Assembly: GCF_002214365.1 (NCBI RefSeq)
Contig: NZ_CP014854.1
Span: forward strand, 372,001 to 436,000
DNA: 64,000 nt
Direction of reading: 5' to 3'
Source: Thermococcus celer Vu 13 = JCM 8558
GTDB taxonomy: Archaea; Methanobacteriota_B; Thermococci; Thermococcales; Thermococcaceae
The position numbers and the translations under genes are program-made. This document shows, piece by piece, positions 12,326 to 17,689 of this stretch. Below the pieces are notes generated by a model that was given only the letters and a program-made list of their open reading frames with translations, did no database searches and was not told the origin of the DNA. How positions within the stretch are numbered: the first letter of the stretch is position 1; each line of letters starts with the position of its first letter.

Positions 12326-12885
12326 CTGTCGGGATAAGTAGTAGGGTGTTAGGTTTAAGTGCCTGATGATACTTCAGAAAAGAGAGGGGGAAAATGAAGA
12401 CTGGAACCATTATTTACTGGATGATTTCAGTCTTAAAAACCTTTTCGCCGGAATAAGATTCCAGTAGAAAAGAAAAGTAGAGCAGTAGAATTATACTTGC
12501 GAGGCCTCAGTTTATCTCTGGGCTGCGATTGATGTTGAAGGCGCAGTCTGGATTACAACAACTAGAAACTGGTGGATTGCCCGGTCTGGTTGTTTTGAAA
12601 TCCTGCGAAGCTGGTTGATGGTGGGCATTGGTACAAGTCTGCCTTTAAGTCTTTGAGTTTGGACTTTGTTCATGTGACTTTTGGGGGCGGAGCGCTGGTT
12701 CAGGACCCTTAAGGAGAGAACGAGGCGTTTCTGGAATAATTTCAGGGGTAAGGACTGGAGGAAGGTTCACAGGTTTGTTTTCTTGTTTGCTTTCTGGTAT
12801 AATTTTATAGCATTCTCGGTTTGGTCGACCACCTGGTGATGTTGCTGAATGGCTTCAGGAGGTGATGCCCCAGTTATCCCAACAG
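12326..12885 (+). mobile_element. Degenerate IS6-like (ISPfu-type) insertion sequence
   Basis: A decayed element bounded by imperfect inverted ends: CTGTCGGGATAA at 12326 and TTATCCCAACAG at 12874-12885. Near the left end a start codon opens MKTGTIIYW, after which the frame breaks up. Near the right end the plus strand encodes ERWFRTLKERTRRFW, then NNFRGKDWRKVHRFVF and FAFWYNF, typical of the C-terminal part of archaeal IS6-family transposases; the frame then shifts. At about 560 bp it is shorter than a full element of roughly 780 bp. A related remnant lies at 54280-54584 on the other strand. No target duplication is visible. It forms the left edge of the AT-rich island. Confidence 0.8.
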
Positions 12886-12911
12886 AATGTAGTATTTGTT
12901 AACCAAAAAAT

Positions 12912-12919
12912 TTTTAAAT
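12912..12919 (+). promoter_or_regulatory. TATA-like promoter of the peptide/radical SAM cluster
   Basis: An AT-rich TTTTAAAT box, preceded by the purine-rich run AACCAAAAAA, lies about 50 bases before the first small peptide gene. Transcription would start near 12940-12945, leaving a short leader that carries GGAGGTGG. The box lies just outside the right end of the IS remnant. A second AT-rich TAATATATATTTTA at 13258-13271 could drive the radical SAM gene separately. Confidence 0.5.
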
Positions 12920-12965
12920 ATTTGAGAATAAACATAGTTTGCATAAACTGTTGGAGGTGGTATGA

Positions 12966-13106
12966 TTGGCAAGAGTTGAATATGTGAAAAAAAGAATATC
13001 CAAAATAAGTACATACAAAGGAAAAGGCGACGAGGTGCCTTTTGTTTGTGTCAGTTGCTTGCTGTGTGTATCAGGAGTGCTATCTCCCACAAGTAGCATT
13101 ACATAA
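12966..13106 (+). CDS. Putative RiPP precursor peptide A, 46 aa
   Basis: A short gene beginning with TTG five bases after a strong ribosome binding site GGAGGTGG (12953-12960). The 46-residue product has a charged N-terminal half (MARVEYVKKRIS) and a C-terminal core EVPFVCVSCLLCVSGVLSP containing Cys28, Cys31 and Cys34. It aligns end to end with the next small gene (peptide B): MA-R/K-V/I-EY-V/I at the N terminus and E-V/L-PF-V/I-C..C..C..G..LSP in the core. The arrangement leader plus Cys core immediately before a radical SAM/SPASM gene is that of ribosomally made, post-translationally modified peptides. The gene is easily missed because of its TTG start. Confidence 0.7.
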   Translation: MARVEYVKKRISKISTYKGKGDEVPFVCVSCLLCVSGVLSPTSSIT

Positions 13107-13119
13107 AAAGGGGATGTCT

Positions 13120-13260
13120 ATGGCAAAAATCGAGTATATTGTGTTCCGAAAGAAGGAAGAATACACCAAGCCTTACCCCGGAACAACTCAGGAGTTACCC
13201 TTTATTTGCAAAGGAGGTTGCGTGGTTTGTGCGGCGGGCTCAATACTTAGTCCATTCTAA
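13120..13260 (+). CDS. Putative RiPP precursor peptide B, 46 aa
   Basis: A 46-residue peptide starting at ATG 13120 after AGGGGAT; an in-frame ATG two codons earlier (13114) is possible. It has a charged leader-like half (MAKIEYIVFRKKEEY) and a core ELPFICKGGCVVCAAGSILS ending in PF, with Cys30, Cys34 and Cys37. It has the same length as peptide A and a matching core, but cysteine spacing is C-x3-C-x2-C instead of C-x2-C-x2-C. It lies 13 bases after peptide A and 39 bases before the radical SAM gene. It is probably the partner of A in a two-peptide product; the modification type is not known. Confidence 0.72.
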   Translation: MAKIEYIVFRKKEEYTKPYPGTTQELPFICKGGCVVCAAGSILSPF

Positions 13261-13299
13261 TATATATTTTAGCTTGGTAATTAAGGAGGTGCTTAAAAA

Positions 13300-14568
13300 A
13301 TGTCTGAGAAAATATTCCTGCCGAATCCTAAAGCATTGTGGGAAATAAAAAATAACAGAGCAATAATACATATGGCGGATAAAGAGCTTGGATTGGATGA
13401 AGAAGGCACTAAAATCTTTTCCAGAATTGTACAACGCAAGCCTATAAAGATAACTACTCTGGAGCAAGAAGAATTTATAGATGATTTGATAAGAAATGAT
13501 GTGATCTTACCCTATAACCCAGAAAATCCTTCTTTTTTCCCGCCGGGAGCTATAGCTGTTGAGATTACACATAAGTGTAATTTGCAGTGTGAGCACTGCT
13601 ACGTAGGAATACGGGAAAATCCAAGTGTTCTATCTTTGGAGGCGTTTAAGAAGATTGTGCGTGAAATGGAAGAGATGAGTTGTTACGCGTTAGCAATTGG
13701 AGGAGGAGAACCTACTTTACATCCAGATTTTGAAAAAATTTTAAGAGCTATATACAACAGTAAGGTAAGAGCACACATAGTCACAAATGGAACAACAAAC
13801 ATTGCAGATTATCTTGAAAAATATGCAGATAAAAAGAGAAATAGCTTTGAAGTGACTGTAAGTATAGATGGACCCAAAGATATACATGAGAAAATTCGGA
13901 AAAATGCAGTATTTGACAGGATAATTGAAAACATCCAGAAACTGGCGGAATTGGGCTGGAAACCGCACATTCAGACAACTGTCTCCTTAAAAAATTATTA
14001 TTCCATTCCCAGATTATTGGATCAAATTAAAAATTTACCCATTCAAAGTTGGGCAGTTAAGATGGAATATCCCGTAGGTAATGCTAAAGTTCATGCAAAC
14101 ATGTTCCCCTCTCCCCATGAATTTGTAGAAATTAGGGATCAGATTCATAAATGGTGGGAAAGAAGTGGTATCAAAACAATAAAGTTTGTAGATGATTTAG
14201 GGTACTTTCCTCCGGTTCTCAAAAAACCAGCTAAAAGAAGAATGTATTATCTTTGTTCTGCTGGTGTTACTCAAGTAACCTTAGATGCAGATGGTAACAT
14301 TACTCCATGCACCCTCATCCAGATTGCTGATGGAACTTCAAAATACATTGCTGGAAATATATATGTGGATAGCTTAAAGGAAGTGTGGAACACCAGTGAA
14401 TTATTGTGGAAATTTAGATTGTTGTGGCCAGAAAATGAGATATGCTCCCGTTGTGGTTTAGTATGTGCCAAGTGTCCCGCTACAGTGCTTGCAATTGCAA
14501 AGAATCTTTTTAAACCTGATCCAAGATGCTCAATGTTCCAGAGGAGGTGTGGCGATGTCAATAGTTGA
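13300..14568 (+). CDS. Radical SAM/SPASM peptide-modifying enzyme with N-terminal RRE/PqqD-like domain
   Basis: A 422-residue maturase. Residues about 8-75 resemble a PqqD-type RiPP recognition element (WEIKNNRAIIHMADKELGLD...LDLIRNDVIL pattern). The radical SAM core follows, with the SAM cluster ligands Cys93, Cys97 and Cys100 (CNLQCEHC) and GGGEPTLHPDFEK around 134-146. The C-terminal SPASM region has Cys319, Cys337, Cys382, Cys385, Cys389, Cys392, Cys410 and Cys417, enough for two auxiliary clusters. The start follows GGAGGTG. It overlaps the ABC ATPase by 14 bases. AT-rich relative to core genes. Such enzymes install thioether or other crosslinks on Cys-containing precursors; here the substrates are inferred to be peptides A and B. 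Confidence 0.9.
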   Translation: MSEKIFLPNPKALWEIKNNRAIIHMADKELGLDEEGTKIFSRIVQRKPIKITTLEQEEFIDDLIRNDVILPYNPENPSFFPPGAIAVEITHKCNLQCEHCYVGIRENPSVLSLEAFKKIVREMEEMSCYALAIGGGEPTLHPDFEKILRAIYNSKVRAHIVTNGTTNIADYLEKYADKKRNSFEVTVSIDGPKDIHEKIRKNAVFDRIIENIQKLAELGWKPHIQTTVSLKNYYSIPRLLDQIKNLPIQSWAVKMEYPVGNAKVHANMFPSPHEFVEIRDQIHKWWERSGIKTIKFVDDLGYFPPVLKKPAKRRMYYLCSAGVTQVTLDADGNITPCTLIQIADGTSKYIAGNIYVDSLKEVWNTSELLWKFRLLWPENEICSRCGLVCAKCPATVLAIAKNLFKPDPRCSMFQRRCGDVNS

Positions 14569-15502
14569 ATTAAAAAACGTTGTAAAATCGTTTTCAGGTC
14601 CCCAGGGGAATATCGTTGCTGTCAACAATCTAAGTTTTCAAGCAAAAGAAAGTGGAGTTCTTGGTATTCTTGGTCCCAATGGTGCTGGAAAAACGACAAC
14701 TTTAAGGATGATTGCCACGATTTACAAGCCTGACAGAGGCACCATAATGGTTGATGGAATAGACGTTCTGAAGGAGCCTTTGAAAGTCAGAAGCAAGATA
14801 GCGTATATGCCCCAGGAGCCGGATTTGATCCCGTCTTTGTCCGTTGAGGATCACATAACTTACTATCTCCGTTTTAGGGGTTTCGACAAAAAAGAAGCCA
14901 AAAAGTGTTGCGAAGAAGCCCTGAGATCATTCAATTTGGAGAAGCACAGAAACAAAAAGCCCTTTCAACTCAGCACTGGGCTAAAAAGACGGGTTCAATT
15001 GGCATCTGTTTTGTCTGCGGAAGCGCCTGTGATTTTTCTTGACGAACCAACAACGGGATTGGATCCGATGAGCAAGAGGAACACGTGGGAGTTAATCAAA
15101 GACAGGATTGAGGATAGCGGGGCAACTATCCTCCTCACAAGTCATGATCTTTATGAGGTGGAGTATCTTGCAAATCGTGTTATAATCATAAACAATGGTA
15201 GACTAATAGCCGAGGGCACGCCGAGAGATTTGAGAAAAAAGTTTGGTAAGAGCGTTAAAGTTGTATTTGAGGATTCTTTGAGTTTTGACGCTTTGAGAGG
15301 GGAGCTTATGGGTGTTGAGGGAGTGAAAGATATTTCTCAGGTAAGCGAGAATGCAGTTGAGATAAAGCTGGACTCCATAGACCGTTCCATTAACAATCTT
15401 GTCCGGGTTCTCGCATCCAAGGAGCTACAAATTAAGGACATCATCACAACCGCTGCAAACTTCGAGGACGTGTATCTTGAAATACTGGGAGGTGAAATAT
15501 GA
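14555..15502 (+). CDS. ABC transporter ATP-binding protein of the peptide cluster
   Basis: A 315-residue DrrA/CcmA-type ATPase. Walker A is GPNGAGKTTT, the signature is STGLKRRVQLA (a variant of LSGGQ) and Walker B is VIFLDEPTTGLD; the C-terminal third is the extension usual for drug and peptide exporters. The ATG at 14555 follows GAGGTGTGGCG and lies inside the end of the radical SAM gene, so expression is coupled. With the permease downstream it would export the modified peptide or give self-protection. No fused C39 peptidase domain is present. Confidence 0.9.
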   Translation: MSIVELKNVVKSFSGPQGNIVAVNNLSFQAKESGVLGILGPNGAGKTTTLRMIATIYKPDRGTIMVDGIDVLKEPLKVRSKIAYMPQEPDLIPSLSVEDHITYYLRFRGFDKKEAKKCCEEALRSFNLEKHRNKKPFQLSTGLKRRVQLASVLSAEAPVIFLDEPTTGLDPMSKRNTWELIKDRIEDSGATILLTSHDLYEVEYLANRVIIINNGRLIAEGTPRDLRKKFGKSVKVVFEDSLSFDALRGELMGVEGVKDISQVSENAVEIKLDSIDRSINNLVRVLASKELQIKDIITTAANFEDVYLEILGGEI

Positions 15503-16293
15503 TGGACCTTAAATCAGCGGTATCTTCGCTTGGAGTTGCCATTTCAAGGGAAATAAAAATTGGCATGGATTTAGAATTTTTCTTCGGGACTTTGTTTGAG
15601 CCCCTAATATACGTCATGCTCTTTGGACCTTTGATGGGGAAGCTCATTGGAAACGTGAATTTTGGGGGAAATGAAATCTCTTATCTTGCTTTTATGTTTC
15701 CAGGAGTGCTCACCATAATAGGCATCAACCAAGGGTTCCGAGGAGCGGCAACATTTATTCAGGATAAGTTTAGAGGAGGCTTGGAGACACTTTTCACGCT
15801 CCCCGTGCATCGTTCAACTCTCTTCTTAGCAAAGATTTTGGGCTCATGTTTGAGGGCATTAATAGCAATGTCGGTAATATCGCTTTTGGCAGCTTTAATG
15901 GCAGAAGGGCTTTCTTTAACGTTATTGGGAATTTTAAAAAGCTTTTTGATCAATATGACCCTTGTTATAGCCTTAGCAAGCTGTATGGTATATCTCCTTT
16001 CCAAGAGTCAAAACCCAAATCTCCCTCTTGCGATTTCCGGCATATTACTGCTGCCCATGATGTTCCTTTCCACAGTTTTTTATCCTGAAAGCGTCTTCAG
16101 CGGTAGCAGAGTGCTATCTCTAATAGTTGCAGTTAATCCCATGACCCACGCCGCGAGATTGATTAGGTCTTTCATATATTCAACGCCACTACCAGCTTCA
16201 ACGTTGCTGATCTCTACAGCATACCTATCGGTTCTTGCGTTTGTAAGTTTGCTATTGGGCATCAGGGGATTTTCACGGGCATTGGAGCGCTAA
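15499..16293 (+). CDS. ABC-2 type permease of the peptide cluster
   Basis: A 264-residue membrane protein of the ABC-2 family with six hydrophobic segments and the conserved FMFPGVLTIIGINQGF and GLETLFTLPVHRSTL regions. Its ATG overlaps the ATPase stop (ATGATG). It pairs with the ATPase to make an exporter. The product, inferred from context, is the modified peptide. Confidence 0.88.
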   Translation: MMDLKSAVSSLGVAISREIKIGMDLEFFFGTLFEPLIYVMLFGPLMGKLIGNVNFGGNEISYLAFMFPGVLTIIGINQGFRGAATFIQDKFRGGLETLFTLPVHRSTLFLAKILGSCLRALIAMSVISLLAALMAEGLSLTLLGILKSFLINMTLVIALASCMVYLLSKSQNPNLPLAISGILLLPMMFLSTVFYPESVFSGSRVLSLIVAVNPMTHAARLIRSFIYSTPLPASTLLISTAYLSVLAFVSLLLGIRGFSRALER

Positions 16294-16323: not shown

Positions 16324-16647
16324 TTGATTCTAACCTTTGTCTATTTCCTTTTTGGATTTTTACTCGCGTTCTGTCCTTTCACAGGAATACCGGCCATACT
16401 GATAGGTATCTTATTCGTCAAAATCGATACTAAAGCCAAGCTCGCGTACTCCCTCGCGGGTTTTGTGGCGGGAACCCTGGCTGGAGCATCCCTGTGGGGG
16501 AGCTCTTGGATCTTTGAGCAACTCAGATGGGGTTATCAGGAACATGGAATATGGGGGTTTATCGGGGGCACAACGATTATCCTGCTGTTAGCCATTCTCT
16601 TGGCCCGGGTTCTTAATAAGAAGTATCCGATGGGTGATGCAAAATGA
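16324..16647 (+). CDS. Small membrane protein of the peptide cluster, 107 aa
   Basis: A 107-residue protein with three hydrophobic segments. It begins with TTG (16324) after GGAGGTGTGAAAT. The stop overlaps the start of the next gene (ATGA). No family recognised. Its position after the exporter genes is where RiPP clusters often carry immunity or accessory membrane proteins; this role is inference only. Confidence 0.65.
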   Translation: MILTFVYFLFGFLLAFCPFTGIPAILIGILFVKIDTKAKLAYSLAGFVAGTLAGASLWGSSWIFEQLRWGYQEHGIWGFIGGTTIILLLAILLARVLNKKYPMGDAK

Positions 16648-17120
16648 AGTATACTGTTTTGGATTTTATATCGGTGGCGATAGCATATGGCATTATAGCA
16701 TATTCTACTCAACTTTTGGGTTTTTATGCTATGCTCCAACTCATGAGTGCCCCTATCTGGAAGATGTGGGTTGCTATAATCGGTGTGGGAATTAAGTTTC
16801 TGTTACAAGTTTCAATAATCTGGTTTTTTATTCGGATAATGCTGGGGTATACCCTTAAGACGACTGATATTAGCTCTGCGTTTGTTCCATTGATTATAGC
16901 CGGGATTTTCTGTTTCGTTTTGAGGTTTGTTGGATACTTTATCCTAACCAATGTGTATCTTATTTCATTAAGACATATTCTGGAAAACATTTCTATGGCT
17001 ATAGGGTGGTTTTTGTCACTTTACCTCCTTGGAAAGAAAATATCGCTGAGTCCTTTAAAGAAACATGTAGTAATATTTGGTATTGGGCTGTTGGTCTATT
17101 TTGTTCTCCCACCGATTTGA
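16644..17120 (+). CDS. Membrane protein of the peptide cluster, 158 aa
   Basis: A very hydrophobic 158-residue protein with about five membrane segments, AT-rich, translationally coupled to the preceding gene. No family recognised. A possible immunity or assembly role comes only from context. It is the last clearly intact gene of the coupled run. Confidence 0.65.
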   Translation: MKYTVLDFISVAIAYGIIAYSTQLLGFYAMLQLMSAPIWKMWVAIIGVGIKFLLQVSIIWFFIRIMLGYTLKTTDISSAFVPLIIAGIFCFVLRFVGYFILTNVYLISLRHILENISMAIGWFLSLYLLGKKISLSPLKKHVVIFGIGLLVYFVLPPI

Positions 17121-17134
17121 TTTAGAACCCTTAA

Positions 17135-17302
17135 TATGGAAACGTATCTTTTGCAATAGGCGAGATCATTGGAGCGGTGATAGGCTTTGTGGGTACAGGT
17201 GATGCCTATTCAAACCAATGGCGGTACCTGTGGTGGGTACCCGTTCTCTTATTCGTCGCTTCGCTCGTGGGAATCTTGAAGGGCACTCTCAAGAGAGCGT
17301 GA
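17135..17302 (+). pseudogene. C-terminal fragment of a membrane protein
   Basis: An open stretch with no acceptable start codon upstream (a TAA precedes it at 17132-17134) encodes a hydrophobic tail: GEIIGAVIGFVGTGDAYS followed by NQWRYLWWVPVLLFVASLVG and a Lys/Arg-rich end. It looks like the 3' end of a lost membrane gene. GC content is visibly higher than in the flanking cluster genes. A non-standard start inside the stretch cannot be excluded. Confidence 0.5.
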
Positions 17303-17350
17303 TTGGAGTACTGGAAGTAGGTTTCAGAAAATACAGAGAAACGTGGGGGG

Positions 17351-17689
17351 ATGTCAATGAACGCATTTAATAAATTGAGGTTTGTTATTCAATCTGCACT
17401 CCTTTTGGGAATACTTAGACTGACTCTAAAGGTTCTACCCGGTTTGAAGGTCTACCTGAAATCGACTGTACCCCTGGCGTTGGCCGGCATAACTGGGTCA
17501 ATGCTAAGGCTTTTTTACAACGATTGGGTACCTTTTAGAATGATCGTGGAGCAGGTGGCTCTAATGTCCGGCTTGATATTAGCCATGCTATTGCCGGGTA
17601 GAGAATTGGGTGCTGGAAGGATATCACACATATCTTGCGCTTTAGTGGGACTCTTGGTATTTTTGGTCATTGTTCCTGTCCCTCTTTAA
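17351..17689 (+). CDS. Membrane protein, 112 aa
   Basis: A 112-residue protein with three to four hydrophobic segments. The ATG at 17351 follows GGGGGG closely; an alternative ATG is at 17357. No family recognised. It is the right-hand edge of the accessory island, after the fragment at 17135-17302. Confidence 0.6.
   Translation: MSMNAFNKLRFVIQSALLLGILRLTLKVLPGLKVYLKSTVPLALAGITGSMLRLFYNDWVPFRMIVEQVALMSGLILAMLLPGRELGAGRISHISCALVGLLVFLVIVPVPL

What the first reader, a model, noticed from the sequence alone, without database searches (positions are those of the whole stretch)
12966..13260. Two precursor peptides of equal length with different Cys spacing
Peptide A (TTG start, strong GGAGGTGG) and peptide B (ATG) both have 46 residues and share MA-R/K-V/I-EY-V/I at the start and E-V/L-PF-V/I-C..C..C..G..LSP at the end. 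A has C-x2-C-x2-C, B has C-x3-C-x2-C. Conservation of both ends with a variable middle is typical of precursors read by one maturase. Two dissimilar cores suggest a two-component product. Peptide A begins with TTG and would be missed by most gene finders.
Basis: seen in the sequence. Interest (0 to 1): 0.78.

Follow-up and report, generated by a model that had tools for sequence, protein, structure and literature searches.

The report
Archaeal cysteine-peptide cassette with radical-SAM maturase
A heat-loving archaeon carries a small, apparently mobile gene cassette making two related cysteine-rich peptides, an enzyme likely to cross-link them and a pump; relatives that lost the peptides keep the pump, as expected if the peptides are antimicrobials and the pump protects.

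Summary
Two 46-codon genes, A (12966-13106, TTG) and B (13120-13260, ATG), encode paralogous peptides (pairwise E=2e-9; none of 5000 shuffles as good). They open an operon with a radical-SAM/SPASM enzyme (13300-14568), an ABC ATPase (14555-15502) and an ABC-2 permease (15499-16293).

Only two other genomes among 115 of the phylum carry orthologous peptides plus maturase, G066 (A+B) and G069 (A only). All three cysteines are invariant in all five peptides. The spacings define two ancient subfamilies (A: CX2CX2C; B: CX3CX2C). Equal length and the LSP tail are not conserved. The TTG start is right: an in-frame stop immediately precedes it, a Shine-Dalgarno sits at normal distance, and orthologues have ATG there.

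The cassette lies at different loci in different genera, with empty sites in congeners. G074, G062 and G063 keep an intact ATPase and permease beside scars of deleted peptide/maturase genes. The G062-G063 transporter evolves under purifying selection (dN/dS about 0.15).

Best explanation: a rSAM-matured RiPP, probably thioether-crosslinked and antagonistic, with the ABC pair as exporter/immunity. Chemistry and activity are untested; an RRE domain was not detectable. 'Two-component' is plausible but not required.

The parts
12911..12923 (+). TATA-like archaeal promoter element (TTTTTAAATATTT) ahead of the operon
   Evidence: Sequence. The corresponding region of G066 is 83% identical over 134 bp in G074, where the peptide genes behind it are gone.
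12953..12960 (+). Shine-Dalgarno GGAGGTGG, 5 nt before the TTG of peptide A
12966..13106 (+). Precursor peptide A, 46 aa, TTG start, CX2CX2C core
   Evidence: Orthologues in G066 (L009:2955-3077 -) and G069 (L010:2831-2953 -)
13120..13260 (+). Precursor peptide B, 46 aa, ATG start, CX3CX2C core
   Evidence: Orthologue in G066 (L009:2790-2933 -), 61% aa identity over 46 codons; not found in G069
13300..14568 (+). Radical SAM/SPASM protein, 422 aa, with an 85-residue N-terminal extension of unidentified fold; proposed peptide maturase
   Evidence: Pfam PF04055 E=6.7e-25, SPASM PF13186 E=4.5e-10; 68-69% identical orthologues only in G066 and G069; best NCBIfam models all far below cut-off
14555..15502 (+). 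ABC transporter ATP-binding subunit, overlaps the maturase gene by 14 bp
   Evidence: PF00005 E=5.6e-32; kept without peptides/maturase in G062, G063, G074
15499..16293 (+). ABC-2 type permease, overlaps the ATPase gene by 4 bp
   Evidence: PF01061 E=4.6e-14; 7 of 115 genomes, own included, have it or a relative

Best explanation
A mobile RiPP cassette of Thermococcales-like archaea. Peptides A and B are translated as unmodified precursors. Their conserved N-terminal segment (MAxIEYVxxRK) is the recognition leader, and the segment P-F-x-C-x2/3-C-x2-C followed by a short hydrophobic tail is the core. The single radical-SAM/SPASM enzyme binds both and modifies the core, most likely by joining the cysteine sulfurs to carbons of other core residues (sactipeptide- or ranthipeptide-like thioethers). 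The ABC ATPase/permease pair exports the product and gives self-protection. The product most likely acts against related archaea. The two Cys spacings give two differently ringed products made by one enzyme; whether they act together is open. Shown: paralogy, start codons, operon, co-occurrence of peptides and maturase, cysteine conservation, insertion at different sites, selective retention of the transporter. Inferred: leader/core boundary, thioether chemistry, export, antagonistic role, host range.
For: Peptides occur only where the maturase occurs: the same three genomes, of 151 and 115 searched. Gene order A-(B)-rSAM-ATPase-permease is conserved while flanking genes differ. The maturase has invariant CX3CX2C, GGGEP and seven C-terminal cysteines (C319, C337, C382, C385, C389, C392, C410), the pattern of a SPASM enzyme with auxiliary clusters. 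Its nearest solved relatives include peptide- or protein-modifying enzymes: anSME, SuiB, SkfB, PqqE, CteB (the names SuiB and CteB for 5v1q and 5wgg are from my knowledge). Immunity-like behaviour: G074 keeps promoter and transporter but has lost A, B and rSAM; G062 and G063 keep the transporter plus about 90 bp of the rSAM 3' end with the same breakpoint. G062-G063 dN/dS is 0.14 (ATPase) and 0.16 (permease), so the transporter is useful without the peptides. The SKF sactipeptide cluster also uses an ABC pair (SkfE/SkfF) for export/resistance (PMC8172795). Patchy distribution with empty sites fits a conflict system better than a cofactor pathway.
Against: No RRE could be demonstrated in the 85-residue extension: Pfam PqqD silent, profile comparison insignificant, medium-confidence model without a matching fold. 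No protease gene in the cassette and no double-glycine site, so leader removal is unexplained. No acceptor residue is conserved after the last Cys beyond hydrophobics. The transporter may serve another substrate. Only three peptide-bearing loci exist, and one has a frameshifted maturase.
Confidence: 0.62

Rival explanations
1. The peptides are metal- or Fe-S-binding peptides (CxxCxxC) that are exported as metallophores or electron carriers; the radical-SAM enzyme alters a residue other than the cysteines.
For: CX2CX2C resembles the first three ligands of a ferredoxin motif (my knowledge); the cysteines are invariant.
Against: No fourth Cys or other invariant ligand; two spacings kept side by side; transporter retained after peptide loss is harder to explain unless it imports the product made by others.
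Confidence: 0.13
2. The peptides are secreted signals (quorum or pheromone type) rather than toxins.
For: Small, probably exported, next to a radical-SAM enzyme; no toxin activity shown here.
Against: No sensor gene is conserved in the cassette; patchy, site-variable distribution and transporter-only remnants look like producer/resistant genotypes.
Confidence: 0.12
3. The peptides are scaffolds for a small redox cofactor, as PqqA or MftA are.
For: Mycofactocin and tungsten-cofactor-associated maturases are among the best NCBIfam matches.
Against: All matches are far below family cut-offs (115.7 against 425 bits for the best); two divergent peptides, no further biosynthetic or cofactor-using gene, rare distribution, ABC export pair.
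Confidence: 0.06
4. The cassette is a decaying relic with no current product.
For: G069 maturase is frameshifted at an A-run; G081 holds only fragments; G062, G063 and G074 have lost the production genes.
Against: In the window and in G066 every gene is intact; maturase orthologues differ mostly at third positions (105/57/221) and B likewise (15/10/28).
Confidence: 0.07

Closest known systems
Thuricin CD (trn) two-component sactibiotic, Bacillus thuringiensis
   Same: Two paralogous precursors with three clustered Cys each, radical-SAM maturation, ABC transporter genes in the cluster (PMC3132745, PMC12093266).
   Different: trn uses two radical-SAM enzymes (TrnC, TrnD) with RRE domains and has a protease gene; here one maturase, no protease, no detectable RRE, Cys spacings CX2CX2C and CX3CX2C instead of CX3CX3C, archaeal host, no synergy shown.
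SKF (skf operon), Bacillus subtilis
   Same: Precursor, one radical-SAM enzyme, ABC pair SkfE/SkfF for export/resistance (PMC8172795); SkfB is among the nearest solved relatives of the maturase.
   Different: SKF is a single, head-to-tail cyclic peptide with one thioether; skfC (putative protease) and a thioredoxin gene are absent here; SkfB has a twitch domain, here seven SPASM-region cysteines.
Sactibiotic-like cluster of Caldicellulosiruptor kristjanssonii (Murphy et al. 2011, PMC3132745)
   Same: Thermophile; CX3CX3C and CX3CX2C motifs in candidate peptides, one of them 45 aa: the nearest published precedent for neighbouring peptides with different Cys spacing.
   Different: Bacterial, has GG cleavage motifs and an adjacent peptidase; no sequence relationship tested beyond the motif.
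ACGX-system (TIGR04340) and TIGR04133 radical SAM/SPASM families
   Same: Best curated maturase matches (110 and 116 bits).
   Different: Far below the curated cut-offs (400 and 425 bits); the N-terminal 85 residues are not covered; the peptides match no NCBIfam family and no Pfam family above cut-off.

Membership tests
Radical SAM/SPASM enzymes | Radical SAM domain with CX3CX2C | tested here: met
   PF04055 88.6 bits, cut-off 29.5; C93, C97, C100 invariant
Radical SAM/SPASM enzymes | C-terminal SPASM domain with seven cysteines | tested here: met
   PF13186 40.1 bits, cut-off 21.5; CX12GX4C ... CX2CX3CX2C ... C, all invariant; spacing of the second half is shorter than the canonical CX2CX5CX3C I recall
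RRE-containing RiPP maturases | N-terminal PqqD-like RRE fold | tested here: inconclusive
   No Pfam hit, hhalign not significant, own PqqD profile no better than shuffles, Foldseek of a pLDDT 65 model without a match
Sactipeptides | Cys-to-alpha-carbon thioether in the product | not testable with these tools
   Needs mass spectrometry/NMR of the product
Sactipeptides | Clustered conserved Cys in the core, modified by a SPASM radical-SAM enzyme encoded next to it | tested here: met
   Three invariant Cys in all five peptides; maturase gene follows directly
Ranthipeptides | Thioether to beta- or gamma-carbon in the product | not testable with these tools
   Needs mass spectrometry/NMR. The six-Cys (SCIFF) pattern and a conserved D/E/T acceptor after each Cys, as I recall them for known ranthipeptides, are absent in the five peptides
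Two-component bacteriocins | Two peptides that need each other for activity | not testable with these tools
   Both present in the window and G066; only A in G069, whose maturase gene is frameshifted
Bacteriocin with dedicated ABC immunity | Transporter protects without the production genes | tested here: inconclusive
   Transporter kept alone in three genomes, under purifying selection in the G062-G063 pair; protection itself not testable
Bacteriocins exported by C39-peptidase transporters | Double-glycine leader and C39 peptidase domain | tested here: not met
   No GG site before the cores; ATPase has no peptidase domain

The most novel reading that the evidence does not exclude
A new class of radical-SAM archaeocin: one maturase, possibly using a leader-binding domain unrelated to the RRE, makes two differently ringed thioether peptides in a hyperthermophile. 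The cassette moves between genera, and an arms-race signature is visible as producer, resistant (transporter only) and empty genotypes.
Probability: 0.25. Interest if true: 0.75.

Novelty: new member of a known kind. Interest (0 to 1): 0.52.

Why it matters
Little is known about peptide weapons in hyperthermophilic archaea, and no paper on a radical-SAM RiPP in this group was found in the library searched. The cassette is small (3.3 kb) and offers a direct test. It gives two natural substrates with different Cys spacing for one enzyme, which is useful for learning what sets ring topology. Natural transporter-only strains provide candidate resistant controls, and an enzyme from a hyperthermophile may be unusually stable for anaerobic biochemistry.

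Tried and rejected
(1) NCBIfam/Pfam scans of the peptides: nothing, even at E=10 in NCBIfam. (2) Two genome-contig scans with the maturase found no relative; viral contigs gave only distant radical-SAM matches; plasmids only low-identity radical-SAM matches (best rows 23-27%) and nothing significant for peptide B' of G066. The genome and viral scans depend on exact back-translated patterns, so they are weak negatives. (3) AlphaFold2 of the maturase with three sequences: mean pLDDT 46, not used; N-terminal part: pLDDT 65, Foldseek without a match. (4) RRE by PqqD profiles: rejected as unsupported. The visible L-[DN]-x2-G-x2-IF similarity to PqqD motifs is no better than chance by these tests. 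(5) Treating the downstream membrane genes 16324-17689 as cassette immunity genes: rejected; they were not seen beside the other cassettes, and 16644-17120 has a 97% identical homologue in G018, which lacks the cassette. (6) An in-frame ATG start for A: impossible because of the upstream TGA; ATG 12962 is out of frame and only about 1 nt from the Shine-Dalgarno. (7) Makarova et al. 2019 on archaeal antimicrobial peptides was not held, so whether it lists this cassette is unknown.

Full report
What is there. The window lies in a 1.87-Mb single-contig archaeal genome. At 12966-16293 there is a compact operon: peptide A, peptide B, a radical-SAM/SPASM protein, an ABC ATPase and an ABC-2 permease, with gaps of 13 and 39 bp and then overlaps of 14 and 4 bp. 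A TATA-like element lies at 12911-12923.

Check of the observation. A and B are both 46 codons. They align over 45 residues at 38% identity (E=2e-9 for the pair), and none of 5000 shuffles of B reaches the score (80 against a maximum of 53). The TTG start of A is well supported. TGA directly precedes it in frame, GGAGGTGG ends 5 nt upstream, and the orthologous genes in two other genera start with ATG at the same codon. Starting at the next in-frame codon would delete the conserved MAxxEY.

Homologues. Of 115 genomes in the phylum and 396 in a wider archaeal sample, only G066 and G069 have a true orthologue of the maturase (68-69% identity; the next best matches lie at E about 1e-39 to 1e-43 and start only at residues 80-87). 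Only the same two genomes have the peptides. G066: A' MAKIEYVVRRRSSEYKGTKEDVPFVCAACLICISAILRGK and B' MAKIEYVRKKKRNREYIKPYVGSTQEVPFKCQSGCVVCAIGAILRST. G069: A'' MAGIIYFKERKYSEYKGNTEELPFVCAFCMVCTQSVIKLT only. Ten columns are invariant, among them all three Cys and the P-F before the first. Within-type scores (A-type 96-115, B-type 146) exceed cross-type scores (64-89). The two spacings are therefore old subfamilies, not a local accident. The equal length and LSP ending of the window pair are not conserved.

The maturase. It has the radical-SAM motif and seven invariant C-terminal cysteines, and it matches PF04055 and PF13186 above cut-off. The best NCBIfam models (TIGR04133, the ACGX system, mycofactocin, nif11-class and tungsten-cofactor maturases) all score far below their cut-offs, so it belongs to none of them. 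Solved relatives include anSME, SuiB, SkfB, PqqE and CteB (SuiB and CteB named from my knowledge). The first 85 residues are specific to this family. Position and size suggest a leader-binding domain, but I could not show an RRE by Pfam, profile-profile comparison, a dedicated PqqD profile with shuffled controls, or a structure search with a mediocre model.

Genomic behaviour. In G066 the cassette sits between truA and a 158-aa gene that are adjacent in most congeners. In G069 it sits between the S19e and PDCD5-like genes, again adjacent in most congeners. In the window it lies in a 6.8-kb island between the DUF192 and PTPS-like genes, which are 0.7 kb apart in G012. It has therefore been inserted at different sites in different genera. 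The permease or a relative is present in 7 of 115 genomes, the window's own included. Three of them (G074, G062, G063) hold intact ATPase and permease genes but no peptide or maturase genes. G074, at the same truA site as G066, keeps the promoter region (83% over 134 bp) and resumes similarity near the ATPase start. G062 and G063 keep about 90 bp of the maturase 3' end with a shared breakpoint. Since that shared loss, the two transporter genes have evolved with dN/dS of 0.14 and 0.16. G081 has only fragments at the S19e site.

Interpretation. Loss of the production genes with retention of the transporter is what an antagonistic peptide with transporter-based immunity predicts. It is not what a self-serving cofactor or a merely decaying cassette predicts. 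The nearest functional parallels are SKF, where SkfE/SkfF serve export/resistance (PMC8172795), and thuricin CD, with two three-Cys precursors (PMC3132745, PMC12093266). A candidate peptide with the CX3CX2C spacing next to a CX3CX3C one was reported in a Caldicellulosiruptor cluster. I therefore commit to a radical-SAM RiPP cassette with probable thioether cross-links. Confidence is 0.62 for the whole scheme taken loosely, about 0.85 for 'radical-SAM-modified precursor peptides' alone, and about 0.5 to 0.55 each for thioethers and for antagonism taken strictly. I do not file it as a sactipeptide or ranthipeptide because the linkage is untested. The two-component reading is possible: both types are kept in two genomes. 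It is weakened by G069, which has A only, though its maturase gene is frameshifted at a run of A and may be non-functional or a sequencing error.

Limits. Three peptide-bearing loci are few. The genome-contig scans relied on exact peptide patterns and may have missed relatives. No metagenome scan was available. The literature library lacks many papers, including the 2019 archaeal antimicrobial-peptide survey, so 'unreported' means not found here.

Noticed in passing
window 12500-12840: Between DUF192 and the cassette, stop-interrupted coding remnants (e.g. WFRTLKERTRRFWNNFRG...RFVFLFAFWYN) resemble an insertion-sequence transposase; no Pfam match, so only an impression. It could relate to how the cassette arrived.
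   Followed up: partly
L096:123-3638 (G065) and L098:70-3641 (G028): A different cassette: two radical-SAM/SPASM genes, a free-standing PqqD-like gene between them and an MFS transporter; the second radical-SAM gene is the nearest non-orthologous relative of the window's maturase in the phylum. No precursor peptide was identified.
   Followed up: partly
window 16324-17689: Three small membrane-protein genes downstream of the cassette, not seen beside the other cassettes; 16644-17120 has a 97% identical homologue in G018 and relatives in 13 further genomes.
   Followed up: partly
L067:4952-6726 (G073): The S19e/PDCD5 interval that holds the cassette in G069 holds an unrelated 1.7-kb insertion (one gene, apparently secreted) in G073 and a cassette relic in G081: a possible insertion hotspot.
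   Followed up: partly
L010:2586-2600 (G069): The maturase gene is frameshifted within a run of A near codon 56 of the window's protein; real mutation or sequencing error cannot be told apart here.
   Followed up: partly
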